Assembly (NCBI GenBank): GCA_021780225.1
Contig: JAJXZF010000062.1
Span: 1 to 63,657 of the forward strand
Direction: 5' to 3'
Length of the DNA stretch: 63,657 nucleotides
Origin: Deltaproteobacteria bacterium
GTDB lineage: Bacteria; Desulfobacterota; Binatia; Binatales; Binataceae
Both the position numbers and the translations under genes were made by a program. Below are positions 8,276-62,352 of the stretch, piece by piece. A model generated the notes under the pieces. That model saw only the letters and a list, made by a program, of their open reading frames with translations. It did not search any database and had not been told where the DNA came from. The stretch's first letter is position 1, and each line of letters begins with the position of its first letter.

Positions 8276-8380
8276 CGCCGCCTCCCGTGTGAAACCCCGG
8301 ATGATTTCAGATGCGAGCGGAGGGTAACATCGGCAGTGCGCGATGGTCAAAACAGCCGTTGCGCGGCGTGGAGGTTCATA

Positions 8381-47284: not shown

Positions 47285-47660
47285 CGATTTCCGCTTCGCG
47301 CAATTCAGGTCCGGACACGGTCCGGCCGGCGAACCGCCGTCGAAGAACATTATGGTCCGGTGAATTATTGGCCCGTCGATAGCGGAGGAGGCAAGTCGGC
47401 GCGCCACCCGATCCGGGAGATTGCCAATCAATCGGGCGTCCAATAATCTGTTAGCTCATGTAACGTTCGATGTTGTTACGATATGTTTCATTGTACTTTG
47501 CCGCTACGCGAGGACATTCCCGGGGAATCGGGGATGAACGCGGTGCGAGAGATCGTAGTGCAGTATTGAAAGATCGGCGAATCGAGACCGATGTCCATCC
47601 GCAAGCAAAGCCAGGCTCGCCCGGCAGCGGCCAATCCATCAGAATCAAAAGCGATCAGCC
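47285..47660. other. 376-base intergenic region between copA and the RiPP cluster
   Basis: The two flanking genes are divergent, so promoters for both copA and the nucleotidyltransferase-led genes should lie here. The centre (47455-47515) is AT-richer than its surroundings. I see no gene, CopR box or convincing -35/-10 pair. Confidence 0.4.
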
Positions 47661-48875
47661 ATGATTTCGCGTGAGGCCGAACTCGTAATCGATCTGGTTT
47701 CAGCGTACGTTTGCGCCGCGGACGAGGAGAGCGTCGCGGCGGCGGTGAAGCCGGGAATCGATTGGAATGAGGTCGAGCGGATCGCTATGTGGAATGCGCT
47801 GGCGCCGATACTGTATCACGTTCTATCCGCGCGTCCGGATTGTGCGCCGGTCGAGAAACTTGCGCAGTGGCGTGAGCTGGTCCGCGCCAATCGGGTCCGC
47901 AACGCCTATCTTGAGAACGCCGTCGTCCGAATCACGAACGCGCTGGCGGACAAGGGCGTAATCGCGATCGCATTCAAGGGGCCCGTGCTCGCGGCGGCGG
48001 CGTTTGGGGACCTTGGGCTGCGCCAGTTCATCGACCTCGACATCCTGGTGCGGCCATCGGAGTTTGGGTCTTGCCGCGAGACGCTCGCGGGGTTGGGTTA
48101 TCGATCGGAATATTCCGGCTTGCGCGACGAAGACCGGGATTTTTTTCAGTCATATCAGGAGACCTTCGACAGCGACGATTGGCTCGCACCGCTCGACGTC
48201 CACTCTCGATTGAATCCGCGCTATTTCGCGTATGCGCCGGAGGGCGATGCGCTGTTTCGGCGGGCCGCCATGATCGAGCTTAAAAGCGGTAGCATAAGGA
48301 CGCTTTCGAACAACGACCTGGTGCTCCATCTGTGCGTCCATGGCGCCAAGCATGGATGGAACTCGCTGGGATGGATTCTGGATATCGCGGCGTTCATGCG
48401 CCGCAATCCGGGGATCGATTGGAGATCGATGTTGGACGACGCATCTTCGGTTGGCGGCCGGCGGATGCTCTTGCTGGGAATTTATTTGACTCGCGATCTA
48501 TTGAAAGCGCCGATTCCGGAGGAAGTGGCGGCGCTCGCTTCCAGCGACAGAGTAATCGTCGATCTTGCCGCCGGCATCAAGCGCGGCCTCTTCCGCAACA
48601 TCGAGCGGCGCGGCGGAGTGATCGGCGAGTGGTCGGCGCCCGTGCGTGCGATTGAATCAACCCGCGGCCGCATACGCTACGTCGCCACGCGGGCGTTGGG
48701 GCCGACGATCGAAGATTGGAAGCTGATGCCGCTGCCTCGCCCGTTGTATCCGCTCTACTATGCAATTCATCCTCTGCGCATGGCGATTACGCAGACGCCG
48801 CGAATAGTCAAATCGCTGTTTGGCGTCCCGGCGGCAAATACCAAATCGCGAAGCCCGCGCCTTGCCGAAGCCTGA
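47661..48875 (+). CDS. Nucleotidyltransferase family protein (NTP_transf_5)
   Basis: The 404-aa product has the NTP_transf_5 core AIAFKGPVLAAAAFGDLGLR followed by QFIDLDILV (Lys106; acidic pair Asp125/Asp127), a DVHSRL His/Asp block and a later LCVHGAKHGWNSLGWILD motif (about 222-239). This family is frequently next to HprK-like kinase, PqqD and asparagine-synthetase-like genes in RiPP loci, but its reaction is unknown. It is the first plus-strand gene of the cluster; the ABC exporter starts 28 bases later. Confidence 0.78.
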   Translation: MISREAELVIDLVSAYVCAADEESVAAAVKPGIDWNEVERIAMWNALAPILYHVLSARPDCAPVEKLAQWRELVRANRVRNAYLENAVVRITNALADKGVIAIAFKGPVLAAAAFGDLGLRQFIDLDILVRPSEFGSCRETLAGLGYRSEYSGLRDEDRDFFQSYQETFDSDDWLAPLDVHSRLNPRYFAYAPEGDALFRRAAMIELKSGSIRTLSNNDLVLHLCVHGAKHGWNSLGWILDIAAFMRRNPGIDWRSMLDDASSVGGRRMLLLGIYLTRDLLKAPIPEEVAALASSDRVIVDLAAGIKRGLFRNIERRGGVIGEWSAPVRAIESTRGRIRYVATRALGPTIEDWKLMPLPRPLYPLYYAIHPLRMAITQTPRIVKSLFGVPAANTKSRSPRLAEA

Positions 48876-48903
48876 GGATTCATCGCCAGCCGGGCGCAGC
48901 GTT

Positions 48904-50784
48904 ATGGAGAGCGTCGATCACGCGGAGCCGCACGGCTCTGAACAGCTTTACAGCGGGCGCGCCGGCGACCGCATCGCGGAGGCGGGCAGCGGATCATTCG
49001 CCGCATTAATTGCTCTGGTGCGCACGATCGCGCAAATCGCGCCGGGGCGTTTCGCCTTGACGATCGCATTGATCGCGATGTTTTCGCTTACCGAAGGCGC
49101 AGGCGTGGCGATGCTTTTTCCGACGCTGCAGTTGGCGGGATACAACCTCGAAAGCCAGGGCAAGGTGGGACATTACGCGCACGTCGTCGGGAACGCATTC
49201 ACGGCCGCTGGATTGAATCCGACGCTGCCGCTGATGCTCAGTTTGTATATTTTGGTGATAGCGGCGCGATCGCTGATCGATCGCTATCGCAACGTATGCG
49301 ACGCGCAGGTGCATCGGCGCGTCGAGGACGTGATGCGCCGGCGGCTGTATCGAGCGATCAGCGAGGCGAATTGGCAATTCATCACCCGAAGCCGCTTGTC
49401 GGATTTCAATCACGCATTGACCGCGGAGATGGACCGAATAACGACCGCGGCCTCATTTCTTACGGCGCTCGCGGCCAACCTCGTGATGGGCGTGCTTTAC
49501 GTGGGCGTCGCGCTGGCGCTGTCCGCGCCGATGACGTTGACGATCATCCTTCTTGGTGCGCTGATGACTCTGGCGCTGTCGCGCCGAACGCGCGGACTCG
49601 AGGAACTTGGAGCGGCTTTGTCCCGGCAGACGAGTCTCATCTATGCCGCGGCGAGCGATCATTTGCAGGGACTGAAGACCGCGAAAACCTACGACGCCGT
49701 GACGCGCGATTTCGAGCTTTTCTCGAACGTGAGCCGGCGAATCGCGGATACATACATAAAGGTGGAACGTGAACAGGCGACGATGAGTTCGTGGTTCGAG
49801 CTCGGATCGGCGATGGCGCTGGGAGTCGTGCTTTTGGCGGCGCTGAAGCTGTTCGCGGCGCCGCCTGCGATGATTCTGATTCTGATTCTGCTCTTTGCGC
49901 GGCTGATGCCCCGCTTCCAGTCGAGCCATCAGTATTACCGCACAATCATCAACGCGTTGCCGTCCTTCGCAAACGTATGCGCGATGGAACGCCGCTGCCG
50001 CGCGGCCGCCGAAGCTCCCGGATCGCCGGGTCACAAGCTGTCCCTTACGAATCAAATCCGCTTGAACCGGGTTTCGTTCACATACGGCGCCGGCGTGAGA
50101 CCGGCGCTTTCAGCGGTCGATTTGACTATTCCCGCGGGGCGGATTACCGCGGCGGTCGGGCCTTCAGGCGCGGGCAAAAGCACTATCGCGGACATCGTGA
50201 TGGGCCTCCTCGAACCGACCGAAGGCGAGGTCATGGTGGATGACGCACGGCTCAATTCGACTGCGCGACGCGGATGGCGAACTCAACTCGGATATGTCGG
50301 CCCGGAAACCGCGTTGTTTAATTTAAGCATCCGCGAAAATCTGCTCTGGGCGCGGCCTGACGCAACCGAGTCCGAGCTGAAGGAAGCGCTCAAAGCATCC
50401 TCCGCTGATGATTTCACGCGAGCGCTGCCAGACGGACTGGATACCATCGTGGGCGATCGCGGAGCGCTGTTTTCTCAAGGCGAATGCCAGCGGCTTGCGA
50501 TTGCGCGGGCGCTGCTCCGCCGTCCGGCGCTGCTTGTGCTTGACGAGGCGACGAACAATCTCGACTATCACAATGAGAAGAGGGTGCTCGGCGCGATCGC
50601 GAAGCTCCGTCCGGAAACCACGGTTTTGGTTATCACTCATCGGCTTTCGACAATTCGCTGGGCCGATCTGATCTATGTAGTCGAAGACGGCAGGATTGTG
50701 GAATCCGGAGGCTGGAACGAGCTGACGGCGAAGCGTAGCGGACGGTTTCATGCACTGTGCGAGTCGCAGCGATTGGTGGCTTGA
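48904..50784 (+). CDS. ABC exporter, fused permease-ATPase
   Basis: The 626-aa half-transporter has six membrane helices (about residues 40-340) and a C-terminal ATPase: Walker A GPSGAGKST (419-427), a degenerate signature LFSQGECQRLAIARALLRRP, Walker B LLVLDEATNNLD and the switch His in VITHRLST. There is no N-terminal C39 peptidase domain, so it does not trim a leader. In the RiPP setting it probably exports the mature peptide (LapD/McjD-like role). ATG 48904 is used; 60 residues upstream overlap the previous gene and are not needed. Confidence 0.85.
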   Translation: MESVDHAEPHGSEQLYSGRAGDRIAEAGSGSFAALIALVRTIAQIAPGRFALTIALIAMFSLTEGAGVAMLFPTLQLAGYNLESQGKVGHYAHVVGNAFTAAGLNPTLPLMLSLYILVIAARSLIDRYRNVCDAQVHRRVEDVMRRRLYRAISEANWQFITRSRLSDFNHALTAEMDRITTAASFLTALAANLVMGVLYVGVALALSAPMTLTIILLGALMTLALSRRTRGLEELGAALSRQTSLIYAAASDHLQGLKTAKTYDAVTRDFELFSNVSRRIADTYIKVEREQATMSSWFELGSAMALGVVLLAALKLFAAPPAMILILILLFARLMPRFQSSHQYYRTIINALPSFANVCAMERRCRAAAEAPGSPGHKLSLTNQIRLNRVSFTYGAGVRPALSAVDLTIPAGRITAAVGPSGAGKSTIADIVMGLLEPTEGEVMVDDARLNSTARRGWRTQLGYVGPETALFNLSIRENLLWARPDATESELKEALKASSADDFTRALPDGLDTIVGDRGALFSQGECQRLAIARALLRRPALLVLDEATNNLDYHNEKRVLGAIAKLRPETTVLVITHRLSTIRWADLIYVVEDGRIVESGGWNELTAKRSGRFHALCESQRLVA

Positions 50785-50843
50785 GACCATTTTCGCCGAT
50801 TGCAACCCATCTACTGTCCATTACCCGGAGGGTCGCTCAGTAT

Positions 50844-51815
50844 ATGAAATTGACGCGCGCACGGAATGAATTGCTCGCGTCGCTTCAAATGAGCGGCCAA
50901 GAGCGCGAAGATCGGGTCGGCAAAGCGATAAGTCCGGACTATTGGCAAGCGTTGTGCCCGGAGATTCCTTTAGAGGTTGCGAATTTCAAAATTGGCGAAT
51001 TACCTTTCAATACCACTCTGGTTGAAGATTCCCTGCGCAGTCTGAAGACGAAAGGCTATTTCGCCGCCGGACGCTTGATCTCCGAGGTGTCGGTCATGCC
51101 AATGCGGGCATGCGTCGAAACGGTTAGAAAAGCGGGATGGCCGCCGGTTTTCGCATTTGCATACGATCCTTTCTGGTCCATCACGCGAGTATCTTTCATA
51201 GCGGAATTTATAGCCGCTCTTCTCGGAGCTGAATTTAACCTCATAATGTCCCGAGTCTGGTGTTACTATATACCGGCCGTCCGAGGCGCCGGAGGATGGA
51301 CGCCGCACGCAGACGATTATCGAGAGCATCAGGGCAGGATTACGCTTTGGATTGCTTTGACCGAAGCGACGCTCGACAACGGCTGTATGTACGTTGTTCC
51401 TCAGGACTTGATATATGGAGCCAAGGTTCCCGTGAAAGAGCGGCTGCGGGAGCCGTTAATTTCAAGCGAGTATTGTCTGGAGTTGCTGCATAGCTGCCGT
51501 GCGTTGCCGGCGGCGGCGGGCTCGGTTCTGGGCTGGGACCCGCGAACCATTCACTGGGGATCGAAATGCCAGGAACCGAAATGGCCGCGAATCAGCCTCG
51601 GTTGCGAGTTCGTGAGCAGAGGAGTAACGCCGAAACCGCACACAATCGACGAACTTGCTCCGGGTCAAAGCGGAGCGGCGCTGCCGAGTTTCATCCAGCG
51701 GATGCGGCACATCGCGCTCTCGATTCGAATCCATAAGGGCCGCGATTTGAAAGCGGCGAGGTTTTCGCAAGTAGCCGAGGAATTGATCAGGATAACGAAT
51801 GAGCGGGCGTCTTGA
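50844..51815 (+). CDS. Phytanoyl-CoA dioxygenase-like Fe(II)/2OG oxygenase, paralog 1
   Basis: This 323-aa protein has the facial triad of Fe(II)/2-oxoglutarate enzymes: His155-x-Asp157 (GWTPHADDYRE) and His237 (RTIHWGSKC), followed by an Arg (about 249) for 2-oxoglutarate. LDNGCMYVVPQ (178-188) is the PhyH-type strand. A GGAGG lies twelve bases upstream of ATG 50844. It hydroxylates or otherwise oxidises a substrate in the cytoplasm; here the RiPP precursor is a plausible one. Its paralog at 56682-57653 has the same length. Confidence 0.8.
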   Translation: MKLTRARNELLASLQMSGQEREDRVGKAISPDYWQALCPEIPLEVANFKIGELPFNTTLVEDSLRSLKTKGYFAAGRLISEVSVMPMRACVETVRKAGWPPVFAFAYDPFWSITRVSFIAEFIAALLGAEFNLIMSRVWCYYIPAVRGAGGWTPHADDYREHQGRITLWIALTEATLDNGCMYVVPQDLIYGAKVPVKERLREPLISSEYCLELLHSCRALPAAAGSVLGWDPRTIHWGSKCQEPKWPRISLGCEFVSRGVTPKPHTIDELAPGQSGAALPSFIQRMRHIALSIRIHKGRDLKAARFSQVAEELIRITNERAS

Positions 51816-51999
51816 AGTCGCGCTGTCCTCGTTCGCGGCAAACGGCCATAGCCGGATTGGTTCCAGCGGATTATGCATGAGCATGTCGCCGAATACGCAC
51901 TCGTTCGGAAGGACGACCGGCTTGCGTCTTGAGCGTCGAAACGGGTTCGGTTTAGCCGTTTTCTTTGTGGAGTGCGCAAACTAGATAGCTGGCGAATGT

Positions 52000-52872
52000 A
52001 TGAGCCGATCGCCGAATTTGAGCCGTGACGCGGCATTTTCGTATCGATGCGGACGGTGCATGTCGTGCTGTCACGATGCGCACATTGCGCTTACTCCTTA
52101 TGAAATCCTGCGCCTGTCCCGAAGCCTCAATCTCTCGACGACGGAGTTTATCGATCGGCATTTAATTGAAGGCGGCATGGTCCTTCGCAATCTGGCTGAC
52201 GGCGGATGCTGCATGCTGGGCGACGGGAGCTGTCGCGTATATTCCGATCGTCCCCTTGTATGCCGCACCTATCCGCTGCTGCGAGTCGTTCGCGGGCAGG
52301 CCGAGAGTTTCGCGAAGTTCATGCCGTTGCCGACGACGCTGGGCGTGTATGGAGAAGCTGGAACGGTCGGCGATTTTCTGACGGAACATCGAACCGCCGA
52401 ATTTATATCCAATCATGACCGTTATTTCGCGGTTCTCCAGAGAATTATCGCTGCGATTGCCGCCGCGATAACATCCTCTCCGAAGCTGTTTCCCGTTGTC
52501 CGCGAAATTATTGAACGGCGAACGGAATTTCACGCAAAAACACCTGCGCGATTAATGGACGTCGACGTGGTTGTCGGCGACTACTGCGGAAGCCGCGGAC
52601 GTGCGTGTCCGCGCGAATTCGACGACGTAATCGATCTGCACGTGACGGCGATCGAAGAGATCGCGGAGGATTTGCGCAAAGGCGTCGCGCGTGACGGATC
52701 GCCGCTCGATCATGACGACGGCGCGGCGTCGCAGCGTTGGCAAAATCAACTTGCGGACCTCTCGGAATTGGCGGGCGCGCTCGGGGCCGCGGCGGACGCC
52801 AACGTGATGCTTATGTTGACGTCGGCCATCTTCGGCCTCCCAAATCAGGGACGCGCCGGGACCTCCAAATAG
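52000..52872 (+). CDS. YkgJ-type cysteine-cluster protein
   Basis: The 290-aa product has Cys17-x2-Cys20-x2-Cys23-Cys24 (RCGRCMSCCHDAHIALTP) and a second group Cys70, Cys71, Cys78, Cys88 (GGCCMLGDGSCRVYSDRPLV), the eight-Cys metal site of the YkgJ/FliB-like family. Members are thought to bind Fe-S or Zn; FliB-type members methylate lysine. The C-terminal half is helical with no known family. It follows PhyH paralog 1 after about 180 bases and converges on the cyclase gene. Confidence 0.8.
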   Translation: MSRSPNLSRDAAFSYRCGRCMSCCHDAHIALTPYEILRLSRSLNLSTTEFIDRHLIEGGMVLRNLADGGCCMLGDGSCRVYSDRPLVCRTYPLLRVVRGQAESFAKFMPLPTTLGVYGEAGTVGDFLTEHRTAEFISNHDRYFAVLQRIIAAIAAAITSSPKLFPVVREIIERRTEFHAKTPARLMDVDVVVGDYCGSRGRACPREFDDVIDLHVTAIEEIAEDLRKGVARDGSPLDHDDGAASQRWQNQLADLSELAGALGAAADANVMLMLTSAIFGLPNQGRAGTSK

Positions 52873-52920
52873 ATCGGGCGCCGCGCGGCGGAACGGTCCG
52901 ATTTCCTGGAATCGAGCATC

Positions 52921-54828
52921 CTATGACCGGGCGCCGCCGAAAATTACGTTGTGCCAAATCTCTATCGCGATCGCCATCCACAAGCGGCCGCTATATTTGA
53001 CCACGCCTTTGTCGTAAGACTCGATCATCTCGGAATAGTCATTCTTGAGGACGGCCGGATCAACCCAGCCGCGCCGCGCGATTTCGAGATTGTCCCACGC
53101 AATCCTGTCGCCGTTGCGCTTCATCGCGTCATGGAAAGGATGTTCGAACGACGCCTTTGAAAATCTCGCGCGAATTTTCTCCGGAAGAACGCCGCGCATC
53201 GCGTTTCTGACTATCCGCCGCTCCTCGCCGAATCGCCGGCATTGATCCTCGGGAATCGCCCATGCGAACTCGACGACGCGCCGATCCAGAAAAGGGTGGC
53301 GCGCTTCCAGGCCGTTTCTAACGTGTGAATGCTCGACTTCGTCCACGACCACAAAGAAATCGCCGTAATGCATAAAATCATAAAAGTCGCGGCGCGCGAT
53401 CGACATCGGCGCGGCGCGCGCAGGCGTCGGCTTCAGGCGTTCTTCCAGCGCGATGCGCCGCGCGAATCCAGGATCGATCCAGGGAGGAAAAGACTGTTTA
53501 TGCCCAGCGAGCCCATGCGCCATTCGTTGCATCGCGCGCGGCAGGAGCGGCAAAAGGCCTTTTGCCAGAAATATGTGCAAGGCTCCGATTTTCTCCCCGA
53601 ATCTAACCGGCGATTGCAGCGAGTCGATGCGAACCTGCCGCATAAGCGACCGCAGTTCGCCCCGGCGCAGCAGGTCTGCGATATCGTCGAGACAGCCGCT
53701 GAAACATTCGTCGCCGCCAAGTCCGGTCAGCAGCACGCGCGCGCCGTCGCCACGGACCGCTTCCCACAGCCGCAGCATTGAGAGGTGATTTGGATATTCC
53801 GGAAAATCTCGATGTTTGCGAACCCATTCGAAATTATCGAACTCGCCGGTAGGATTGTGCGTCAGGAGATCGCCGCGCACGCCGGTATGCCGGAGCGCTT
53901 CATTGATATAATCGGTTTCATCGTCAACAAGGCCGGGAAAGGTCAACGAGTACGTTTTGAAACGAGACGGTGAAGAAGGCCCGCCGTCGAAAAATTTGTG
54001 CGCGGTGCAGACAATCGACGAGGAATCGAGGCCGCCGCTCAATTGCATCGCCAGAGGACCGGCGCAACGCATCCGGCAGCGTACCGATTCCTTGAATATG
54101 TCGAGGAAATGCTCGGCGTATTCGTCGTCGTTGCGGTATCGGAGCTCTTTTCGCGGATCCAAATCGAAATACCGGCGGACGCTGATTCGACCTTGGCTGG
54201 CGGTCAAGACGTGCCCGGGTCGCAGTCGCATGATTGAGCGAAAGAGGGTTTCTCCGCCGGTCGCGCGTTGATAGGCGAGATACTCCCCGACCATCCCTTC
54301 GTTCGGCTGACGGGGAATCTCCGGATGCGACAACAGGGCGTTAATTTCGGAGCCGCAGACGAAGATGCGGCCGTCGCCATAGTAATAAAGCGGCTTGACG
54401 CCCAGTGCGTCGCGCGCGCAGAGCAAAGTTTCCGCGCGCGCATCCCAAATCGCCAGGGCGAAATCCCCCAAGAGCTTTTCGACGAACGGTTCGCCCCAGC
54501 ACTGGTAGCTGCGGAGGACAATTTCAGCATCAGTCGTCGCGCGCGGTCGCAATCCTCGCTCTTCGAGCGCGTGCCGCAGCTCTGCCACGTTGTCGATCCG
54601 TCCGTCGAAAATCAAGCGATAATCGCCGGTTTCATCGCAGTGCGGCTGGGTTTCGTCCAGCGACTCCGGCGTCGTGTGAAACATCCGATGGCCGAGCGCC
54701 GTCGGACCGCCGCGCCATATCCCGGAGCCATCGGGTCCGCGATGTGCGATCGCGTCGAGCATCCGTTCGATTTCACGCGGCTCGGCTGGGCGTCCGTCGA
54801 GATGGAGGATCGCCGCGAGGCCGCTCAT
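52921..54828 (-). CDS. Asparagine synthetase-like lasso cyclase (C protein)
   Basis: The 635-aa protein has the two-domain AsnB layout. The N-terminal glutaminase domain starts MSGLAAIL: the nucleophile Cys that normally follows Met is Ser, so no ammonia is made from glutamine. The ATP-pyrophosphatase motif SGGLDSSS is intact at 264-271. Such inactive-glutaminase AsnB homologues activate the side chain of Asp/Glu in lasso precursors by adenylation and close the macrolactam with the peptide N-terminus. A PqqD-like gene lies 32 bases upstream and would supply the precursor. Confidence 0.82.
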   Translation of the reverse strand: MSGLAAILHLDGRPAEPREIERMLDAIAHRGPDGSGIWRGGPTALGHRMFHTTPESLDETQPHCDETGDYRLIFDGRIDNVAELRHALEERGLRPRATTDAEIVLRSYQCWGEPFVEKLLGDFALAIWDARAETLLCARDALGVKPLYYYGDGRIFVCGSEINALLSHPEIPRQPNEGMVGEYLAYQRATGGETLFRSIMRLRPGHVLTASQGRISVRRYFDLDPRKELRYRNDDEYAEHFLDIFKESVRCRMRCAGPLAMQLSGGLDSSSIVCTAHKFFDGGPSSPSRFKTYSLTFPGLVDDETDYINEALRHTGVRGDLLTHNPTGEFDNFEWVRKHRDFPEYPNHLSMLRLWEAVRGDGARVLLTGLGGDECFSGCLDDIADLLRRGELRSLMRQVRIDSLQSPVRFGEKIGALHIFLAKGLLPLLPRAMQRMAHGLAGHKQSFPPWIDPGFARRIALEERLKPTPARAAPMSIARRDFYDFMHYGDFFVVVDEVEHSHVRNGLEARHPFLDRRVVEFAWAIPEDQCRRFGEERRIVRNAMRGVLPEKIRARFSKASFEHPFHDAMKRNGDRIAWDNLEIARRGWVDPAVLKNDYSEMIESYDKGVVKYSGRLWMAIAIEIWHNVIFGGARS

Positions 54829-54860
54829 CCGAATGTTTCGATCGGGCAGGTGGGCTTGAA

Positions 54861-55145
54861 TCAGCCGTTTTCGGCGGCGGAGACTCTGAGCATCCCTTTT
54901 TGGGACAGCTCATTTACGAATTTCTCGAAATCTTCGCGCAATTTTTCGGGATCGACGCCGTCGTACGCGTCGTTCAGCTCAGAGAGCGCTTTGTCGGTTG
55001 AACCATATTCCGCGATCAACCGCCAAATATCGTTTCCGGAACCCGTCAGGCCGAAATAGTGATTGGTAGCGAGATCCAGAATCACAACCTCGCCGCCCAA
55101 TTCGCGCCACACCACGTCTTCAGATATTTCGATCTTCATATGCAT
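54861..55145 (-). CDS. PqqD-like RiPP recognition protein (lasso B1-like)
   Basis: The 94-aa product (start at Met1 or Met3) shows the PqqD fold: a beta hairpin VVWRELGGEVVILDLATNHY and helices FGLTGSGNDIWRLIAEYGSTD and ELSQKGMLRV. This domain (RRE) binds the leader peptide and delivers it to the modifying enzymes; in split lasso systems it is the B1 protein. Its first 26 bases overlap the PRMT-PqqD gene, and the cyclase gene follows 32 bases behind, so the three minus-strand genes are a unit. No B2 protease is fused or adjacent. Confidence 0.85.
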   Translation of the reverse strand: MHMKIEISEDVVWRELGGEVVILDLATNHYFGLTGSGNDIWRLIAEYGSTDKALSELNDAYDGVDPEKLREDFEKFVNELSQKGMLRVSAAENG

Positions 55146-56274
55146 ATGGAACCATCACTTCGACGACAAAGACCGCGGCCTCCGCCGGCGAAGCAAACAA
55201 ATTCCGGTGCCTTTCGTAAACTTCCCGCTCGATTTCCGCCACATTTCTTCGACCGTCGCAGAGGTCCACGACTGTGCGCCGCGCCTCGCCCCATTTCGTC
55301 AGTTTAGGGACAAAATCCGGCCGGGCCTTTTGCAGGTCTTCGGGGCAGAAAAGCATCCCGAGAAAGGTTGAGTGGACGAACCGGGCGCGCTGCCGGCCGT
55401 TTTTGTCAAAAATCGCCGCCCGCCAAGAGACCAGCTTTTCTTCGGGGACGATTTTCATGGCGATTTGAACGCAATCGTCCGGTTCAACCGCGAGCGCCGG
55501 ATGCAGCGGGAAAAAGACCGCGCGGCGGCCAATTTTTTTCCCGGAGAGAGGCGAATTGGTCATGGTCACCGACGGCGACAGCAGGGCGGCGAACCATCCG
55601 CCAATGCCATGCAGCGTGGCCCGGCGCCGCACATTGCAAGCCGCCTTCCCACTGAGCACGGGCGCGCAATCGCGGGTAAGGTCGATTGAAGCGATAATCG
55701 ACGGCTCGGAGAGTATCTGATGCGGCTGGTAGGACGTGGGATGTCCCGTGTTGATCGCTATCGAGTGGGCCGGAGCGAAGTCGAACCCCTGCGGCGATTG
55801 TCTCCAGAAGTCAATTTCTCCGGCGAGGCTCGCGGCTTCGACCGGGGCGACGCACAAATCGATCCGCAACGGCGTCATCCGCGCGCTGGGCTTTAAGAGA
55901 CGACGGCGGGCGTCGGCGAAATACTGAACCGCTCCCGCCTCGAAGCCGAAACGGCCAATCTGATCGCTGACCACCACGTCGGCCAATTCCGGCAGGTTGA
56001 TCCGGGTCGACAGGCCTTTGACGCATACCACACGGTCGGCAAAGCCATTCGCCGCAAAGATCTCCCGCTCGAGTTGCGTAAGCCCGCCGTTATCGAGGGC
56101 GTATACTCTGGCCGCGCCGGACCGCAGCGCCAGGAGCCCGAGAATTCCCGTGCCCGAGCCCAAATCGACGACCACGTCGCCGGGCTTTACCACTTCCTCG
56201 ATTGCGCGGCGGAAGGCGGAAAGTCTAGCCTCATCGCTTAGGTATTCGCGATGTTCGTCGAGAACAAGTGACAA
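55120..56274 (-). CDS. PRMT-like methyltransferase fused to a C-terminal PqqD-like domain
   Basis: The only possible start is a TTG at 56274 (a TAA stands two codons before it). The 384-aa product has a SAM site VVVDLGSGTGILGLLALRSG (34-53) with YALDNG as the post-I acidic loop, then a beta-barrel-like region, as in protein arginine methyltransferases. The last 60 residues (about 325-384, ARRTVVDLCDGRRNVAEIER) resemble the C-terminal half of PqqD. An RRE-like domain on a methyltransferase points to a peptide substrate. It could methylate the RiPP precursor; the PRMT double-E loop was not clearly found. Confidence 0.72.
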   Translation of the reverse strand: MSLVLDEHREYLSDEARLSAFRRAIEEVVKPGDVVVDLGSGTGILGLLALRSGAARVYALDNGGLTQLEREIFAANGFADRVVCVKGLSTRINLPELADVVVSDQIGRFGFEAGAVQYFADARRRLLKPSARMTPLRIDLCVAPVEAASLAGEIDFWRQSPQGFDFAPAHSIAINTGHPTSYQPHQILSEPSIIASIDLTRDCAPVLSGKAACNVRRRATLHGIGGWFAALLSPSVTMTNSPLSGKKIGRRAVFFPLHPALAVEPDDCVQIAMKIVPEEKLVSWRAAIFDKNGRQRARFVHSTFLGMLFCPEDLQKARPDFVPKLTKWGEARRTVVDLCDGRRNVAEIEREVYERHRNLFASPAEAAVFVVEVMVPYAYEDRNI

Positions 56275-56681
56275 AGCTTATACTCACTCTTATGCCGGGC
56301 GCGCCGAATTTGGAAATTTTACCTGTAATCAATGCGAATCATCGATTCGCCAATATCCATTTACAGAAAGACAGGAGCGCCCGGCCTTTCACCTTTTTTC
56401 AAGCTGCACGACGTTTGAATGGTAACCGAGCGCCGCCCGAGATTCAACGCTTCTTTTTTCCCGATCCGGAAGCGCAAGCCGCCAATTCCCCCGACAGCCG
56501 TTTCGTTGAAACGCAATTTCGAACGTGTCGTCGCCTTCCGTCTGTGCTGACCGTTTAGTATCGTTTGGACGGATTGACGCCGTGAGCGTCCAATTCCCGG
56601 CTGGTCGGCGGTTCAGGTTCCGAGGCGCAGGAAAAGTGGATGTTCGACCTCAACGATCTACCGGGAGCGTTCGCGATTTAA
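56275..56681. other. 407-base divergent spacer between the PRMT-PqqD gene and PhyH paralog 2
   Basis: It should hold promoters for both flanking genes. A short plus-strand frame (56268-56558) has no ribosome binding site or recognisable product and is not called. The PRMT start has only a GAGTGAG stretch upstream. No operator or hairpin is evident. Confidence 0.4.
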
Positions 56682-57653
56682 ATGAAAAACGAGGGCAATT
56701 CGCTTTCCGCCACGGCCAGAAAGCGGTTATTGGCAAGTTTGGAATTATCGCAAAGCGATCTGAACGATCGTTTGGCCAAGGCGTCGAACGCCGCTTACTG
56801 GAAAGCTCTATATCCCGGATTTTCCGTGTGCGATGAGGCTGCGGCGCGGCCGGCCGCAGTCCCGTTGGCAAACGGGACCCTCGACAAGATCGCAAACGAT
56901 CTGAGCGTGCGCGGCTTTTGCGTCGCCGAAAACGCGATTGGCGATGAGGTCGTCGAGCCGCTGCGCGCCTGCGTCGAAACAATCAGGCAAGCCGGATGGC
57001 CGCCAGTGTTTGCGTATGTCTTCGATCAATTCTGGCTGGTCTGGAGGCTTGCGCCCGTCGCCCAAATCGCGGCGGCGGGGCTTGGCGAGGGCTATCGCTG
57101 GATTTCGCACGGATGGTGCCACTATGTTCAGCCGGTCTCCGGCGCCGCCGGCTGGCCTCCACATGTCGACGGCAATCTTCCGAATCGAATGTCGGTTTGG
57201 ATTCCGCTCTCGGACGCGACTCTCGACAACGGTTGCATGTATGTAATTCCCGGAAACCTCAATACTTCGGGCATCGGCGAACGGCGGGCATTGAAAACGG
57301 CGACCAATCTGCAGTTGCGGGAGTTGATGCAACGCGGCAGGGCGCTTCCGGCGAGAGCGGGATCCCTCCTTGGATGGTATTTTCGAATTTTACATTGGGG
57401 ATCAGTATGCCAATTACCCGGCAACCCGAGAGTGAGTATCGTAATGGAGTTCATTGGTCCGGACGAACGTCCTCTGAGCGGCGAACTGCCGCTGGTTGAC
57501 GCGCAAGGCGCGCTCCCCTCCCTGACCCAGCGCCTGTATGCGATAGGGAGGGCGATTCAGCATTACCAGCGATTTGAATTAAAAATGCGCCGTTATGCCG
57601 ATTTGGGGCGGGCTTTGATGCTGGCGTATCGGGATGGATTTCAGAGCCGTTAG
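56682..57653 (+). CDS. Phytanoyl-CoA dioxygenase-like Fe(II)/2OG oxygenase, paralog 2
   Basis: Also 323 aa and clearly homologous to the 50.8-kb gene: CVETIRQAGWPPVF (97-110) and LDNGCMYVIPG (181-191) match it, and the metal ligands are His161-x-Asp163 (GWPPHVDGN) and His238 (RILHWGSVC). Similarity covers the full length, so an old duplication is likely. Two such enzymes at one locus could act on different residues of one peptide. The TAG stop is also the first three bases of the TAGTGTGACATCCC repeat. Confidence 0.8.
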   Translation: MKNEGNSLSATARKRLLASLELSQSDLNDRLAKASNAAYWKALYPGFSVCDEAAARPAAVPLANGTLDKIANDLSVRGFCVAENAIGDEVVEPLRACVETIRQAGWPPVFAYVFDQFWLVWRLAPVAQIAAAGLGEGYRWISHGWCHYVQPVSGAAGWPPHVDGNLPNRMSVWIPLSDATLDNGCMYVIPGNLNTSGIGERRALKTATNLQLRELMQRGRALPARAGSLLGWYFRILHWGSVCQLPGNPRVSIVMEFIGPDERPLSGELPLVDAQGALPSLTQRLYAIGRAIQHYQRFELKMRRYADLGRALMLAYRDGFQSR

Positions 57654-57918
57654 TGTGACATCCCGCAAATAAGTTTGTTTTGCGGCGGCGAATCGGGGTT
57701 CTTCGCTTCGTCCTTCGCTACGCTCAGGACCGGCTCAGAATGACAAAAGGAGGGACGTTTTTGTTGTCATTCTGAGCGCAGCGAAGAATCCCTGATCCGG
57801 GGAAAATTCGCAAACTCCGAGCGGAGATTGCCACGGCGGAAAATACCGTGATTCTTCGCTGCGGCGACCGTCGCTCAGAATGACCAACGGGCTTGCGCGG
57901 AGGTTCCTTGGCGGCTAA
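57651..57918. repeat. Repeat array: TAGTGTG element followed by three palindromic repeats
   Basis: The unit TAGTGTGACATCCCGC at 57651 matches the MITE ends of the 7-kb element (TAGTGTGGCGTCCC). Behind it come three copies of the GTCATTCTGAGCGCAGCGAA repeat: inverted at about 57699-57745, direct at 57763-57799, and inverted at about 57850-57885. No ORF. It separates the plus-strand PhyH gene from the minus-strand kinase gene. Confidence 0.7.
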
Positions 57919-58890
57919 TCAAGTGTGCTCGAGATCGGCGAGTACTAATTCATGAGCCTCTTTCAACGCGCCGAGATTGTTGGGCATCAACAAGCGCCGC
58001 GCGGGCATGGATCCCGCCACCCGTTCCGCGAAGCGAAACTCGTTCAGCAGTAATTCCGCCTTGGTGCTGTCCATCCGAATGCAGTAGTTGACCAATTCAA
58101 AGAAAGTGTCGCGCGGAGACAGCGGTTCAATCTCCGGCGACGCGACGCCCGCTTCGGCGTTCATGCGGCTCAAAAAATAGATTCTCGCCAACGGATGCGG
58201 CTCGTACGAAAATTCCAACTCGGACGGCCTCAAGCGTAATCGCCGCTTTGATGTGTAGTCGGCGACGGGTTCGGTCGCCGTCGCCCGCGGCATGAGGGCT
58301 TCCAACGCGTCGCCGCACAGCTTGACGCTCGGATGGGTGGCCAAGGCCAGCACCGTTCCGCGGTCTTCGAGCACCAGGCAGTCGTCGGTCAAAATCCGAT
58401 GGCCAGCGCGCGAGAAGCTCATGGCTAAAGTTGACTTGCCGCTTCCGGAGTCGCCGACGAATGCGCACGAACCGCGATCGGCGACCATGGCGGCCGCATG
58501 CAGGACATATTTCCCACGCAGGGCCATCACCAGCGGCAGTACGTGGTCGAGCAACAAGGCGCGAATCGTCAGATCGGAAACGCCCGCCGTTCTGGCGCAA
58601 CAGGCGATCTGGCGGCCCGCGCGGCCCACCCAGAAATCAGCCAGTTCGTGATAGCGGAGCAGATAACCTTCGTCGTTCTTGGCCCGCGCCATCCAACGGT
58701 CGCCGTTGTCAAGACGCTGATCGAGATACCAAACAAGGGACGGTGGAACTTTCGCGCTCGCAGCGTCCGCAAGCCTGACGGTCAGAAAATCGTCGTCGCC
58801 ACAGGGTTCGACCGATTGCGGTTCCAGTTCGGGTAGTGACGTATCGCTTAGGACGCCGAGCCCCGCAACCCGGTACCTGATATACTTCAT
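57919..58890 (-). CDS. HprK-like kinase of RiPP (lasso) type
   Basis: The 323-aa product has the HPr-kinase P-loop CAFVGDSGSGKSTLAMSF (GDSGSGKST 146-154) with TDDCLVLEDRG as the following acidic motif, in a much modified C-terminal HprK fold; the HPr-binding N-domain is not recognised. HprK relatives in lasso clusters phosphorylate a serine of the precursor. It is transcribed toward 57.9 kb, 170 bases behind the precursor gene. It may instead phosphorylate another partner. Confidence 0.78.
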   Translation of the reverse strand: MKYIRYRVAGLGVLSDTSLPELEPQSVEPCGDDDFLTVRLADAASAKVPPSLVWYLDQRLDNGDRWMARAKNDEGYLLRYHELADFWVGRAGRQIACCARTAGVSDLTIRALLLDHVLPLVMALRGKYVLHAAAMVADRGSCAFVGDSGSGKSTLAMSFSRAGHRILTDDCLVLEDRGTVLALATHPSVKLCGDALEALMPRATATEPVADYTSKRRLRLRPSELEFSYEPHPLARIYFLSRMNAEAGVASPEIEPLSPRDTFFELVNYCIRMDSTKAELLLNEFRFAERVAGSMPARRLLMPNNLGALKEAHELVLADLEHT

Positions 58891-59060
58891 GATGGTTGAG
58901 ACGCGAACATTACCTGGACAAGGGCGGCTGCGGCATGAAGTCTGAATGTCACGCCACCCCCGCCCTTGTCAATCTGGGCAAAATCCGCCGACAGACGTGC
59001 AATCAGAGCCGGTGAAAATCAGTCAAACTGATTCGCTTAGTCGCGCGAAAATCGCTCGGC

Positions 59061-59225
59061 TCAGAGACAAGAGCCTTTCATGCCAGTGCTATCGGGCAGA
59101 CTGACGCCTTTTGGAGTGGCCGTAATCTTTGTGACGCTGCCGTAGTCGACCAGAGCGGGAGGGACGTATGCCTTTTTCTTTTCGGCAGGCTTTGATTCGG
59201 ATTCGATGGATGGTTTTTTTCGCAT
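59061..59225 (-). CDS. Lasso-type RiPP precursor peptide
   Basis: A 54-aa peptide starts at ATG 59225, seven bases behind AGGAG; an in-frame upstream ATG (59264) has no such site. The leader carries the complete lasso motif: Tyr20, Pro23, Leu25, Gly29 and Thr35 (YVPPALVDYGSVTKIT, fitting Y-x2-P-x-L-x3-G-x5-T). If cleavage follows Ala36 (Thr at position -2), the core is TPKGVSLPDSTGMKGSCL, 18 residues with Asp at position 9, fit for a Thr1-Asp9 macrolactam. Thr at core position 1 is uncommon (Gly is usual). The lysine-rich N-terminus (KKKAY) is normal for these leaders. Confidence 0.8.
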   Translation of the reverse strand: MRKKPSIESESKPAEKKKAYVPPALVDYGSVTKITATPKGVSLPDSTGMKGSCL

Positions 59226-59353
59226 TGACCAACTCCTGGATCCACCTAACTGTTTAGATCGCATTCCTTCGATTTTATGCTGCTTTTCATCGGATACGCG
59301 GTCTTACCGTCTGTTAGATACGTCGGGGCGCGCTTCACCGCTTAGCACGATGA

Positions 59354-59382
59354 ACTATTGCATCGTTTATTCGCCCGGTCAA
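59354..59382 (-). promoter_or_regulatory. Predicted sigma-70-type promoter of the precursor gene
   Basis: On the minus strand TTGACC (59382-59377) and AATAGT (59359-59354) are separated by exactly 17 bases; matches to consensus are five and four of six. The precursor ATG lies about 130 bases downstream, so the message would have a long leader. No sigma-54 -24/-12 element was found although a sigma-54 regulator gene is close. Confidence 0.35.
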
Positions 59383-59541
59383 GCCGGAAAAGCGCCTCAA
59401 TACGCCAAAATATTGCGAGCGTAAGATGGGGAATTTTTGCAACGCTGATCAATGCGAATCATCCGCAAGACGCCTGCGTATGAAAGATCACCCCGAATCG
59501 AAGCGTCCCATACGAACCGATTTTAGCCTAAGGCGTTCAAT

Positions 59542-60156
59542 TTAAAGGCCCGGTTTGGACCGCCAAAGCATCGCGACATCAAGATGCTTCCAGAATCCAT
59601 ATCTCTCCAGCCAGGGGTTCTTTTTCATGGCCCATCCATAGGCCGGGGTTACATAAGCGATTCTTATTTCACGAGGATTCTGTCGCAGGCCGGCCTCGAT
59701 TCTGGAAAGAACCGTGCGGACGGCGCCTGGCCCGAAAGAGTTGTTCATGAAGAAAACCGTGCCATGCGAGAAATCGAAATCCTGAACCTCGCCATGTTTG
59801 ATCATTATCGGGCTTTTGCGGTGGCGCATCTGTTCCGCATTGCCAACCGCGATGTCGCATAATTCCTGTATGTATTCAACACCTATCACCTGCGCAGCGC
59901 CAAGATACGCCGCGCAACAAACCACCCGGCCTTTGCCGCAGCCAAGGTCGACGAACACGTCCGACTCTTTGAGCGGCAGACCGCGGAGAGTCCGAAAAAT
60001 CGTGCGGTAAAGCGTGGGCGTGTAGATCTTATGTTCCGTATCGCGGGCGCGTTCGTACGGCAGGCGCGTGGTTCGCGTTCTAATCCCGAGCCAATTTTCC
60101 CAAAAAAGGCTTTCGGCGCGATAAAGGTCAAGTTGAAGCTTCCGGCGAAATCTCAT
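59542..60156 (-). CDS. Class I SAM-dependent methyltransferase
   Basis: The 204-aa product has the SAM motif VFVDLGCGKGRVVCCAAYLG (67-86) and the acidic post-I VIGVEYIQEL. A second motif (FFMNNSFGPGAV) stands where the catalytic loop of Dot1/DOT1L-like and related enzymes lies. ATG 60156 begins MRFRRKLQLDLYRAES. It is on the same strand as the precursor, 317 bases upstream, and could methylate the peptide (for instance its C-terminus), but it may be unrelated and only adjacent to the IS remnant. Confidence 0.75.
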   Translation of the reverse strand: MRFRRKLQLDLYRAESLFWENWLGIRTRTTRLPYERARDTEHKIYTPTLYRTIFRTLRGLPLKESDVFVDLGCGKGRVVCCAAYLGAAQVIGVEYIQELCDIAVGNAEQMRHRKSPIMIKHGEVQDFDFSHGTVFFMNNSFGPGAVRTVLSRIEAGLRQNPREIRIAYVTPAYGWAMKKNPWLERYGFWKHLDVAMLWRSKPGL

Positions 60157-60204
60157 GGCTCGATTGGTATGGGCCTGTTGGCGTGCTCCCCAATGCCCGT
60201 CAGT

Positions 60205-60814
60205 TCATAAGTAGAGTCGGTTGTCATTTTTCCCCGCAGGGGGCGGAATCAGTTTCTCCGTTTTGAGCCGCGCGAACTCAAATGGGGTCAGCGCGCCGAG
60301 GCTCGAATGCGGGCGGCAATAGTTGTAATCGTCGCGCCAGGCTTCGATGTTTGCCCGCGCCTCGGCCATGCTCAGGAAGATATGCTCATTGAGGCATTCG
60401 TCGCGCAAGCGGCTGTTGAAGGATTCGACGAAGGCGTTCTGTACGGGTTTGCCCAGCGCGATGTAATGACTGTCCAGCCGCCCCAGCGACCAGCGCAGCA
60501 CTGCCGTGCTGGTCGGCTCGCAGCCGTTCTCGCTGGCAATGACGCTTGGCAATCCGCGCTCCAGCACCGGTTGCTCCAGTTCGCGCCCGCCGCCGATGGA
60601 GGTATCGACCCATGCAGGCCAGGCATTCGCGGTTGAAGTAAGTCGTCGACCACGCACAGGATGCGAAAGCGCCGGCCATCGCCCCACCTCCGCAGCCGTG
60701 GATCGAACTCTCCCTTTGTACACCAATCGATCGGCTTGTGCAGAGGTTCCCTAACCGACCACACCAGGTTGAAACCTCAATCGCCAATCGGTGTACTTCT
60801 GCAGGGCGGGTCAC
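60205..60814 (-). pseudogene. Degraded IS3-family transposase (OrfB C-terminal half)
   Basis: The C-terminal part of a DDE transposase is clear: [39 protein letters not shown] and [20 protein letters not shown]. Upstream of about 60500 the match continues in other frames (for example [18 protein letters not shown]), so at least one frameshift has occurred, and the N-terminal half of the gene and OrfA are missing. It marks an old IS insertion at the right border of the RiPP region. Confidence 0.8.
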
Positions 60815-60909: not shown

Positions 60910-62352
60910 TCACGACCCATTCTCACGCCGATAGCGCCCTAACCGGTTATACATCGTTTTGAGACTGATGCCGAGAATCTTCGCGGCTTTTACCTTATTA
61001 CCATTGACTGATTTCAGAGTGTCCATCAGGAGGGCTTTTTCAATTTCGCGAAGCGACCTCCCAGGTGCGGATTTCAACGCTTGATTGACAGGCTCATTGC
61101 GGACTATGTACGTGGACAGATCGTCGACGGTAAGCCGGCTTCCCGTAGCAGCCACTACGGCCCGCCTGATGACATTGCGTAATTCTCGAATGTTACCTGG
61201 CCAAGGATATTCGATAAGCGATCGCAGACAAGACTCTTCCGCGCCATTGATCTCCTTTCGCTCCTGACTCGCGAACTCGTCTATCATGGCTGCTGTCAAC
61301 TCGGGTATGTCCTCGATTCGCTCACGCAATGGCGGCAGCGATACCGAGAAGACATTGAGCCTATAAAAGAGATCCTGCCGGAATTTGCCATCAGTGATCG
61401 CCTTCGACAAATCTCGATTCGAAGTAGCGAGTACGCGGCAATCAGTCGAAATGCTTCTGATTGCGCCGACTGGTCGAACGGCGCGTTCCTCAAGCACGCG
61501 AAGCAGTTTCGCTTGCAGCTCGATCTTCATTTCTGTGATCTCGTCGAGCAGCAAAGTCCCACCCGTGGCGATCTCAAAGTAGCCCTGATGCCGACGGTTG
61601 GCGCCAGTGAATGCGCCCTTTTCATGACCGAACATCGCGCTTTCGACCAGTGTATCCGGCAGGGCTGCACAATTGACGGCGACAAAGGGTCCTTCTCTTC
61701 GAGGAGACAATTCATGTATTGTTTTCGCGACAACTTCTTTACCCGTGCCGGTTTCGCCTACTACGATTACCGAGGCGCTGCTCGGTGCGACACGTTTGAT
61801 TAGCTCGGCCACGGGGTGCATGGCCGGAGAGCGCGCGACCAGGCCGCCGTGTCTTCGCACGTACCTCGAGCGTCCGCCCGCGGCATGAGTGGCGCGTCCT
61901 TTTTTTCGGGCCTGACTTGCCCTACGAAGCGTGAATTTCAAATGAGCGGCTTCGATCGGTTTTGGAAGAAAATCGAACGCGCCGAGTTTGACCGCATTGA
62001 CGATGTCTTCCGTGCTGCATTGTTCCGAGGTTACAATCGCGACGACGTCCACGTTCTTCGTGCGGATACTTGCGAGAATTTCAATGGCGTCTATAATCGG
62101 CCGCTGCAAATCCACCAAAAACACGTCAGGAGCGTCGTTCTCTAAAGATATAATCGCCTGCTCATTGTTGATAACAATATCAACTTCGAAGCCCCACGAT
62201 TTTAAAAGAGCCATCCACTTTTCCCGCAACCGGGGGTCGTGCTCGGCGAGCAGGACTCGCATACCGCGCAGTTGATCCGCATTATCGTCCAAATTCAAAG
62301 ACTGATCAGCGCGTATGAACGAATTTGCTCTGATATCCCTGGTTTCCACCAT
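60910..62352 (-). CDS. Sigma-54-dependent response regulator (NtrC family)
   Basis: The 480-aa protein has a receiver domain (about 31-145; phospho-acceptor Asp81, Lys131), an AAA+ domain with Walker A GETGTGKE (199-206), the sigma-54 contact loop GAFTGA (246-251) and RQDLFYRLNVF, and a C-terminal Fis-type HTH (about 435-478, KVKAAKILGISLKTMYNRLG). The residue before the acidic pocket is Glu37-His-Asp39, slightly atypical. No sensor kinase lies beside it. ATG 62352 follows GGAGGA directly; Met31 is an alternative start. Confidence 0.9.
   Translation of the reverse strand: MVETRDIRANSFIRADQSLNLDDNADQLRGMRVLLAEHDPRLREKWMALLKSWGFEVDIVINNEQAIISLENDAPDVFLVDLQRPIIDAIEILASIRTKNVDVVAIVTSEQCSTEDIVNAVKLGAFDFLPKPIEAAHLKFTLRRASQARKKGRATHAAGGRSRYVRRHGGLVARSPAMHPVAELIKRVAPSSASVIVVGETGTGKEVVAKTIHELSPRREGPFVAVNCAALPDTLVESAMFGHEKGAFTGANRRHQGYFEIATGGTLLLDEITEMKIELQAKLLRVLEERAVRPVGAIRSISTDCRVLATSNRDLSKAITDGKFRQDLFYRLNVFSVSLPPLRERIEDIPELTAAMIDEFASQERKEINGAEESCLRSLIEYPWPGNIRELRNVIRRAVVAATGSRLTVDDLSTYIVRNEPVNQALKSAPGRSLREIEKALLMDTLKSVNGNKVKAAKILGISLKTMYNRLGRYRRENGS

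What the first reader, a model, noticed from the sequence alone, without database searches (positions are those of the whole stretch)
47661..60156. Lasso-type RiPP cluster of unusual composition
In one 12.5-kb stretch lie a precursor with a complete lasso leader motif, a glutaminase-dead AsnB-like cyclase, a PqqD-like B1 protein, an HprK-like kinase, NTP_transf_5 and an ABC exporter. These are joined by two Fe(II)/2OG oxygenases, a PRMT-PqqD fusion, a YkgJ-like Cys-cluster protein and a second methyltransferase. Kinase, NTP_transf_5, PqqD and AsnB are known lasso companions. I do not recall twin PhyH enzymes with a PRMT-RRE fusion in a described class. The product could be a hydroxylated, methylated and/or phosphorylated lasso peptide, or a linear RiPP built from lasso parts.
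Basis: partly seen in the sequence, partly recalled or inferred. Interest (0 to 1): 0.9.

Follow-up and report, generated by a model that had tools for sequence, protein, structure and literature searches.

The report
Split lasso-peptide cluster with new modifiers
This is a gene cluster for making a knotted (lasso) peptide that has gained two oxygenases and an unusual methyltransferase, while the enzyme that should cut the peptide free appears to be encoded elsewhere in the genome.

Summary
The cluster is real and conserved; by homology to two sister genomes it spans 47641-59409. Precursor, AsnB-like cyclase, PqqD-like protein, HprK-like kinase, NTP_transf_5, exporter, PRMT-like methyltransferase and both PhyH oxygenases recur there in the same order with low dN/dS. 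YkgJ (window only) and the second methyltransferase (unlinked in both sisters) are probably passengers. (1) No leader peptidase (B2) lies in the cluster; the sisters keep a B1-B2 pair at another locus, apparently the remnant of an older lasso operon. (2) The cluster's PqqD belongs to a different clade from that B1. (3) The PRMT-like enzyme is lasso-linked in 31 of 80 GTDB loci, from about ten phyla by record title. It has a PRMT core but not the usual arginine-site signatures, and its C-terminal domain is only weakly PqqD-like. All five PRMT-lasso genomes with this PhyH have Lys at core position 2 or 3, against 0 of 27 other cores, so ring-lysine hydroxylation is my leading guess. A new variant of lasso biosynthesis, with a methyltransferase family I could not find described. 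No chemistry has been shown.

The parts
47661..48875 (+). NTP_transf_5 protein; likely counterpart of PsmN/BsfN-type lasso nucleotidyltransferases (sequences not compared)
   Evidence: 190 bits; 79% identical in sister cluster
48820..50784 (+). ABC exporter, no C39 peptidase domain seen; start codon uncertain
50844..51815 (+). PhyH1, Fe(II)/2OG oxygenase with intact HxD...H and Arg
   Evidence: H155 D157 H237 R249 invariant in 8 of 8 (alignment seen); sister clusters
52000..52872 (+). CxxCxxCC (YkgJ-like) protein; found only in this genome's cluster, probably a passenger
52921..54828 (-). AsnB-like lasso cyclase (C), no Cys2, SGGLDS motif present
54861..55145 (-). PqqD-like RRE of the cyclase/PhyH-adjacent clade, not in the clade of the family's B1 genes
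   Evidence: tree
55120..56274 (-). PRMT-fold methyltransferase (residues 1-307) with C-terminal helical domain (327-377), only weakly PqqD-like
56682..57653 (+). PhyH2, second Fe(II)/2OG oxygenase, about 39% identical to PhyH1, triad intact
57919..58890 (-). HprK-like kinase with H-K-D-D motif
59061..59225 (-). lasso precursor (54 aa): leader 59118-59225, predicted core TPKGVSLPDSTGMKGSCL 59064-59117, predicted ring Thr1-Asp9
59226..59409 (-). conserved upstream region of the precursor (promoter by inference), right limit of homology to sister clusters
   Evidence: precursor plus upstream align at 77% DNA identity
59542..60156 (-). MT2, DOT1/PCMT-like methyltransferase next to an integrase-core fragment; judged NOT part of the cluster

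Best explanation
A lasso-peptide cluster of a Binataceae-like bacterium with a split layout. Inferred pathway: precursor 59061-59225 is bound by its leader. Its linear form is modified by the PhyH pair (hydroxylation, most likely of ring Lys3), the PRMT-like enzyme (methylation, probably not of Arg) and the HprK-like kinase with NTP_transf_5 (phosphorylation, then sugar transfer, as reported for pseudomycoidin). The leader is cut by a B1-B2 pair encoded at another locus. The AsnB-like cyclase joins Thr1 to Asp9, and the ABC transporter exports the product. Shown: gene content, conservation, low dN/dS, unlinked B1-B2 in two sister genomes, and the Lys-PhyH association. Inferred: every chemical step, the ring, and the presence of B1-B2 in this genome.
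For: Same nine genes in the same order in G003 and G004; copAB synteny on the left; dN/dS 0.11-0.33 for all nine in two comparisons. All 14 Binatia precursors (the window's and 13 found without asking for an acid) have Asp at core 8 or 9, and 13 of 14 have Thr(-2). B1-B2 in G003 (PF13471 96 bits; NF033537 101 bits, cut-off 33) and G004 (91 bits), on other contigs than the cluster; B2 is also on another long contig than the cluster in G008 and G031. In G001, G002, G005 and G006 the related B2 stands in a run B2-AsnB-HprK-NTPt5-ABC, while G003/G004 keep only B1-B2; that pair has dN/dS 0.22 and 0.30. Strong PhyH matches in 5 of 148 class genomes, all five with a PRMT-lasso cluster. In G008 the PhyH lies next to a PqqD of the window's clade. 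Lys at core position 2/3: 5 of 5 PhyH+ against 0 of 27 other cores.
Against: B2 is absent from this genome's assembly; the left-flank match ends 325 bases before a contig end, so loss and assembly gap cannot be told apart. B2 is on the same contig as the PRMT cluster in G007, G023, G034, G038 and G118, so the split is not general. AsnB is below the curated lasso-cyclase cut-off (472 against 525). Lys association: post hoc, only three genera; with the genus collapsed 16 of 3000 shuffles do as well, and 127 of 3000 against the 9 Binatia cores only. L120 has a distant PhyH in its lasso locus and no ring Lys. G003/G004 precursors lack the -CL end. The enzymes' substrates are untested.
Confidence: 0.72

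Rival explanations
1. The cluster is a decayed or half-built lasso locus: B2 is truly lost in this genome and no mature lasso is made, or an unrelated protease or leader-independent cyclisation replaces B2.
For: No B2 over cut-off in G000 and no match to the sister B1-B2 genes. Pseudomycoidin is reported to be made without leader and leader peptidase (title seen in the reference list of PMC9266682).
Against: All nine core genes have dN/dS at or below 0.33, and the left flank of the B1-B2 locus ends near a contig end in G000.
Confidence: 0.15
2. A linear RiPP made with lasso parts: the AsnB-like enzyme acts other than as a macrolactam cyclase.
For: AsnB below the curated lasso cut-off. Four loci hold PRMT, HprK, NTPt5 and PqqD matches without AsnB (some PqqD and HprK scores are weak), so a similar tailoring set may exist without a cyclase.
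Against: Asp at core 8 or 9 in 14 of 14 Binatia precursors; AsnB kept in the window and both sister clusters.
Confidence: 0.07
3. The PhyH enzymes hydroxylate residues other than Lys, such as the two ring prolines (P2, P8) or Asp9, or act on a small molecule rather than the peptide.
For: Two enzymes and two conserved prolines in all three twin-PhyH cores; canucin's CanE hydroxylates Asp (PMC9266682 passages).
Against: The G022 core found has no proline and the G008 core only P3. All five genomes with strong PhyH matches have the PRMT-lasso cluster.
Confidence: 0.4

Closest known systems
bsf lasso cluster of Bradymonas sediminis (A, B1, B2, C, D, kinase, nucleotidyltransferase; PMC10368454, abstract and passages seen)
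   Same: Same core set including HprK-like kinase and nucleotidyltransferase; the kinase acts on Ser3 of the core
   Different: bsf has B2 in the cluster and Ile(-2), and the introduction passage lists only the kinase and nucleotidyltransferase as extra genes. The window has no B2, has Thr(-2), PRMT and PhyH
Paeninodin / pseudomycoidin clusters (PadeK, PsmK, PsmN; PMC9266682 passages)
   Same: HprK-like kinase with His-Lys-Asp-Asp, nucleotidyltransferase partner
   Different: Those kinases phosphorylate a C-terminal Ser; the window core ends -Cys-Leu
Canucin A (CanE, Fe/2OG hydroxylase; PMC9266682 passages)
   Same: Fe(II)/2OG enzyme on a lasso precursor, helped by a B1-type RRE
   Different: One enzyme, C-terminal Asp; here two PhyH enzymes and a predicted ring-Lys target. 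I did not compare CanE's sequence
StspM / LihM lasso methyltransferases (PMC9266682, PMC13352647 passages)
   Same: SAM methyltransferase in a lasso cluster
   Different: StspM was modelled on a mitomycin O-methyltransferase and LihM is PIMT-type; the window enzyme is PRMT-fold with a C-terminal helical domain. Sequences not compared
Eukaryotic PRMT1/PRMT6
   Same: Whole catalytic and barrel core (Z 33.7, 302 residues; PRMT6 E 2.9e-25)
   Different: Double-E loop altered and THW loop absent; extra C-terminal domain

Membership tests
Lasso peptide biosynthetic system | Precursor with YxxPxL...G...T(-2) leader and Asp/Glu at core 7-9 | tested here: met
   NF033521 20.4 bits over cut-off 19; T(-2), D9
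Lasso peptide biosynthetic system | AsnB-like cyclase without the glutaminase Cys | tested here: met
   NF033535 is the best NCBIfam match at 472 bits but below its cut-off of 525; MSG start, SGGLDS
Lasso peptide biosynthetic system | PqqD-like leader-binding protein | tested here: met
   PF05402 56.6 bits; not in the clade of the family's B1 genes
Lasso peptide biosynthetic system | B2 leader peptidase in the genome | tested here: inconclusive
   None over cut-off in the 96.9% complete G000; present, unlinked, in G003 and G004 with the same cluster
Lasso peptide biosynthetic system | Threaded product | not testable with these tools
   Needs expression and MS/NMR
Protein arginine methyltransferase | PRMT core fold with SAM motif | tested here: met
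   D37 and G41 in 29 of 29
Protein arginine methyltransferase | Double-E loop and THW loop (recalled as PRMT signatures) | tested here: not met
   First Glu is Asp in 27 of 29; second is Glu in 2 of 29 (A, G, Q or V otherwise), though 14 of 29 have a Glu one position earlier; the string THW occurs in 0 of 29. The 29 are tail-bearing members only
PRMT-PqqD (RRE) fusion | C-terminal PqqD fold with leader-binding strands | tested here: inconclusive
   Helices only, no strands in the model; best row PqqD 3g2b Z 5.1, 51 residues, rmsd 2.3, tied with unrelated rows at 4.5; hhalign 2-3%; Pfam PqqD matched 4 of 29 members, PKMT winged helix 3 of 29
Fe(II)/2OG PhyH oxygenase | HxD...H triad and Arg | tested here: met
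   Invariant in 8 of 8 (alignment seen)
Lasso precursor kinase (HprK-like) | His-Lys-Asp-Asp motif | tested here: met
   LHAAA...GSGKS...TDD; motif as given in PMC9266682

The most novel reading that the evidence does not exclude
A two-locus lasso system: the peptidase module (B1-B2) stayed at an old operon whose other genes were lost, and serves a newer cluster in trans. There, twin PhyH enzymes hydroxylate ring Lys3. The hydroxylysine is the handle for the kinase and NTP_transf_5 (phospho- or glyco-hydroxylysine), and a PRMT-fold enzyme that no longer targets arginine methylates the peptide. That would be the first hydroxylysine lasso known to me and a new RiPP methyltransferase family.
Probability: 0.15. 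Interest if true: 0.8.

Novelty: new variant of a known kind. Interest (0 to 1): 0.6.

Why it matters
It points to a methyltransferase family in lasso biosynthesis that is widespread (31 of 80 GTDB loci, about ten phyla by record title) and that I could not find described in the open-access library (reviews searched by passage). It suggests that lasso maturation can be split between unlinked loci, so cluster finders that demand B2 nearby would miss such systems. The Lys-PhyH association gives a direct test of peptidyl-lysine hydroxylation in a lasso ring.

Tried and rejected
PRMT as an arginine methylase of the core: the window core has no Arg, and double-E/THW are not kept; rejected as default.

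Proline hydroxylation by both PhyH: the G022 core found has no proline; kept as a rival.

B2 hidden in the window or genome: PF13471 over six frames finds nothing above cut-off. The best sub-threshold place, C43, was fetched and showed no match to the lasso genes.

Whether G000 lost the B1-B2 locus: left flank at 7656-8710 of the 9035-base contig C19, right flank internal to the 101-kb contig C37, order not kept; unresolved.

C-terminal domain of PRMT as an RRE: hhalign against PqqD failed and the best Foldseek E was 1.8; only the VIA re-alignment put PqqD on top, within 1 Z of unrelated rows.

(paper search, 2 of 6 terms) was swamped by human PHYH papers and told nothing; one search gave two papers seen in the listing only.

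Counts that lean on my own choices. The precursor pattern asked for Asp/Glu near core 7-9 and T, S, I or V at -2, so over all 33 rows the Thr(-2) and acid counts (32 and 31 of 33) are partly by construction; I use only the 14 Binatia rows, of which 13 were found's pattern, which asked for no acid (it did ask for T or S after the Gly). One search's 87 loci hold 7 relatives' loci already known to be lasso-linked; without them it is 31 of 80, and the 80 are the best-scoring of 161 confirmed in a capped scan.

Rows dropped. The alignment holds the window plus 28 of the 29 relatives listed (split gene L030 left out), and itself had left out the 9 lasso-linked PRMTs whose alignment ended early (those without a C-terminal tail). 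One search uses 33 precursors. Left out: L022 18606 (spurious), L080 (doubtful), L163 (G002, unlinked, no PRMT), and those that matched only the looser pattern (for example in L059, L077, L104). L089's genome was not searched for PhyH, only its locus. One search left out second copies L058 and L087.
Full report
What is there. The precursor (59061-59225, minus) passes the curated lasso_leader_L3 model (20.4 bits against 19). Its Thr(-2) is followed, after one residue, by TPKGVSLPDSTGMKGSCL, so the predicted ring is Thr1-Asp9. Where the core starts is inferred by aligning the residue six after the leader Gly with relatives, not measured.

Conservation. Of 145 relatives, 25 have a PRMT match at E 1e-5 or better. 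I opened 13 contigs with strong matches; 12 of them hold lasso genes (the exception is G110, L033). In the genus the cluster is in G003 and G004 with nine genes in the same order, including both PhyH and without YkgJ; no PRMT match was found in G001, G002, G005 and G006. DNA homology runs through copAB (44525-47518), then 47641-59409 with breaks, and covers the upstream region of the precursor. dN/dS (NG86) is 0.11-0.33 for every one of the nine genes in two comparisons; for the window comparison dS is above 1 for seven of the nine, so those ratios are rough.

Members and passengers. YkgJ homologues occur in 39 of 145 genomes; among the loci compared the only match is the window's own. MT2 (59542-60156) is 77-78% identical in G003 and G004 but on other contigs. 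In G003, not in G004, it again lies near a piece matching the integrase-core fragment that flanks it in the window. At E 1e-15 it occurs in the three genomes with the cluster and not in the other four of the genus, so a functional link is not excluded, but it is not part of the conserved cluster.

The missing peptidase. PF13471 finds no B2 above cut-off in the whole genome. G003 and G004 each have one on a different contig from the cluster; the G003 protein passes NF033537 at 101 bits (cut-off 33). Beside each is a PqqD. B2 and cluster are also on different long contigs in G008 and G031, but on the same contig in G007, G023, G034, G038 and G118; G015, G022 and G133 cannot be judged, their contigs being broken there. 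In G001, G002, G005 and G006 B2 is followed by AsnB, HprK, NTPt5 and ABC (runs in G001 and G006 are cut at contig ends), with B1 visible in three of the four; the same RND-type neighbour stands upstream in G002, G003, G005 and G006. The simplest history is that G003 and G004 lost the rest of that operon and kept the two genes that the PRMT/PhyH cluster lacks. In a tree of 38 PqqDs the B1 genes of G002-G006 and most other B2-adjacent ones of this family lie in one clade of 12 (99/98). The window's lies in a clade of 7 (98/96): six next to AsnB, two of these also next to B2, and one next to PhyH. G023 and G038 are exceptions: they have a PqqD next to both B2 and AsnB outside both clades. In this genome the B1-B2 locus was not found; its left-flank match ends 325 bases before the end of a 9-kb contig and its right flank is elsewhere. 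Loss and assembly gap cannot be separated.

The PRMT-like enzyme. Of these 31 have AsnB plus a kinase or precursor within 10 kb; with 7 lasso-linked loci from relatives added, 38 of 87. Several of the others are short contigs. By record titles (MAGs, so bins may be wrong) the lasso-linked ones include Acidobacteria, Actinomycetota, Burkholderiales, Chloroflexi, cyanobacteria, Planctomycetota, Gemmatimonadetes, Myxococcales, Pseudobdellovibrionaceae and Binataceae. The model (pLDDT 93.7) matches PRMT cores over residues 1-307 (Z 33.7, 302 residues, rmsd 2.1). In 29 tail-bearing members the first Glu of the double-E loop is Asp in 27, the second position is Glu in 2 (14 have a Glu one position earlier), and THW occurs in none (signatures recalled, positions). 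A C-terminal tail of 55 or more residues goes with lasso context: 29 of 38 lasso loci against 10 of 47 others (Fisher 4e-7, not corrected for relatedness, and including the 7 chosen loci). The tail is a confident three-helix bundle whose best row is PqqD 3g2b at Z 5.1, under the level that means much and tied with unrelated rows. It has no strands, so if it binds leaders it does so unlike a canonical RRE (inference). Ten of the 16 precursors that sit with PRMTs at 43% identity or more end in Cys-Leu, and 0 of the other 17 do (read). This hints that the C-terminus matters to this enzyme group.

The PhyH pair. Strong matches (over 450 bits) occur in 5 of 148 class genomes: G000, G003, G004 (twin), G008 and G022 (single, unlinked); a sixth genome, G040, has a 46-bit match. 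All five have a PRMT-lasso cluster; 13 of 145 relatives do, and the chance of 5 of 5 is 2.6e-6 if genomes were independent, which they are not. In G008 the PhyH gene lies next to a PqqD of the window's clade. Of 24 other genomes with this PRMT (23 lasso-linked's rule, plus L050) one (G171, L120) has a distant PhyH, in its lasso locus. All five PhyH+ cores carry Lys at position 2 or 3; 0 of 27 others do. I noticed this pattern before testing it. When every residue and position is scanned under shuffled labels, 0 of 3000 shuffles equal it. With the genus collapsed to one row 16 of 3000 do, and against Binatia cores alone 127 of 3000. Lysine hydroxylation is therefore a lead, not a result.

Literature. 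'lasso peptide' with 'PRMT' returns no paper, and with 'arginine methyltransferase' one preprint on another antibiotic, seen only in the listing. 'phytanoyl' with 'lasso peptide' returns two papers seen only in the listing; 'hydroxylysine' one graspetide paper, listing only; 'B2 protein' with 'elsewhere in the genome' none; one search gave eight papers, of which I searched passages of three (PMC9266682, PMC8498205, PMC13352647). Those passages name other lasso methyltransferases and CanE, not these enzymes. Of PMC10368454 I saw the abstract and passages. The library is open-access only, so absence there is weak evidence.

Verdict. A conserved lasso system of known kind with a tailoring set I could not find described and an apparently split peptidase module: a new variant of a known kind.

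Noticed in passing
L056 6354-12742, L066 7904-16219, L096 8776-12963, L097 7565-11122: PRMT-like enzyme with HprK-like, PqqD-like and NTP_transf_5 matches (some weak) but no AsnB match: a similar tailoring set may exist without a lasso cyclase.
   Followed up: partly
L141 5929-12826 and L163 1336-1614 (both G002): A lasso enzyme operon in which I found no precursor, while a lasso-like precursor (core KPGTRGDG...) lies on another contig: precursors may be unlinked too.
   Followed up: partly
L139 9421-10717 (G008): A PhyH-PqqD pair on a different contig from both the lasso cluster (L023) and the B2 gene (L036) of the same genome.
   Followed up: partly
window 59545-60726: DOT1/PCMT-like methyltransferase next to an integrase-core fragment; also matches PADLOC mad2 (41 bits), as does the PRMT-like enzyme weakly (27.6 bits).
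   Followed up: partly
window 44523-47443: copB and a multicopper oxidase directly left of the cluster, syntenic in both sister genomes.
   Followed up: no
window 60910-62352: Sigma-54-interacting response regulator to the right of the cluster; whether it controls the cluster is unknown.
   Followed up: no
L031 from 7169 and 7442; L065 from 8430 and 8781: Two precursors in one PRMT-lasso locus.
   Followed up: no
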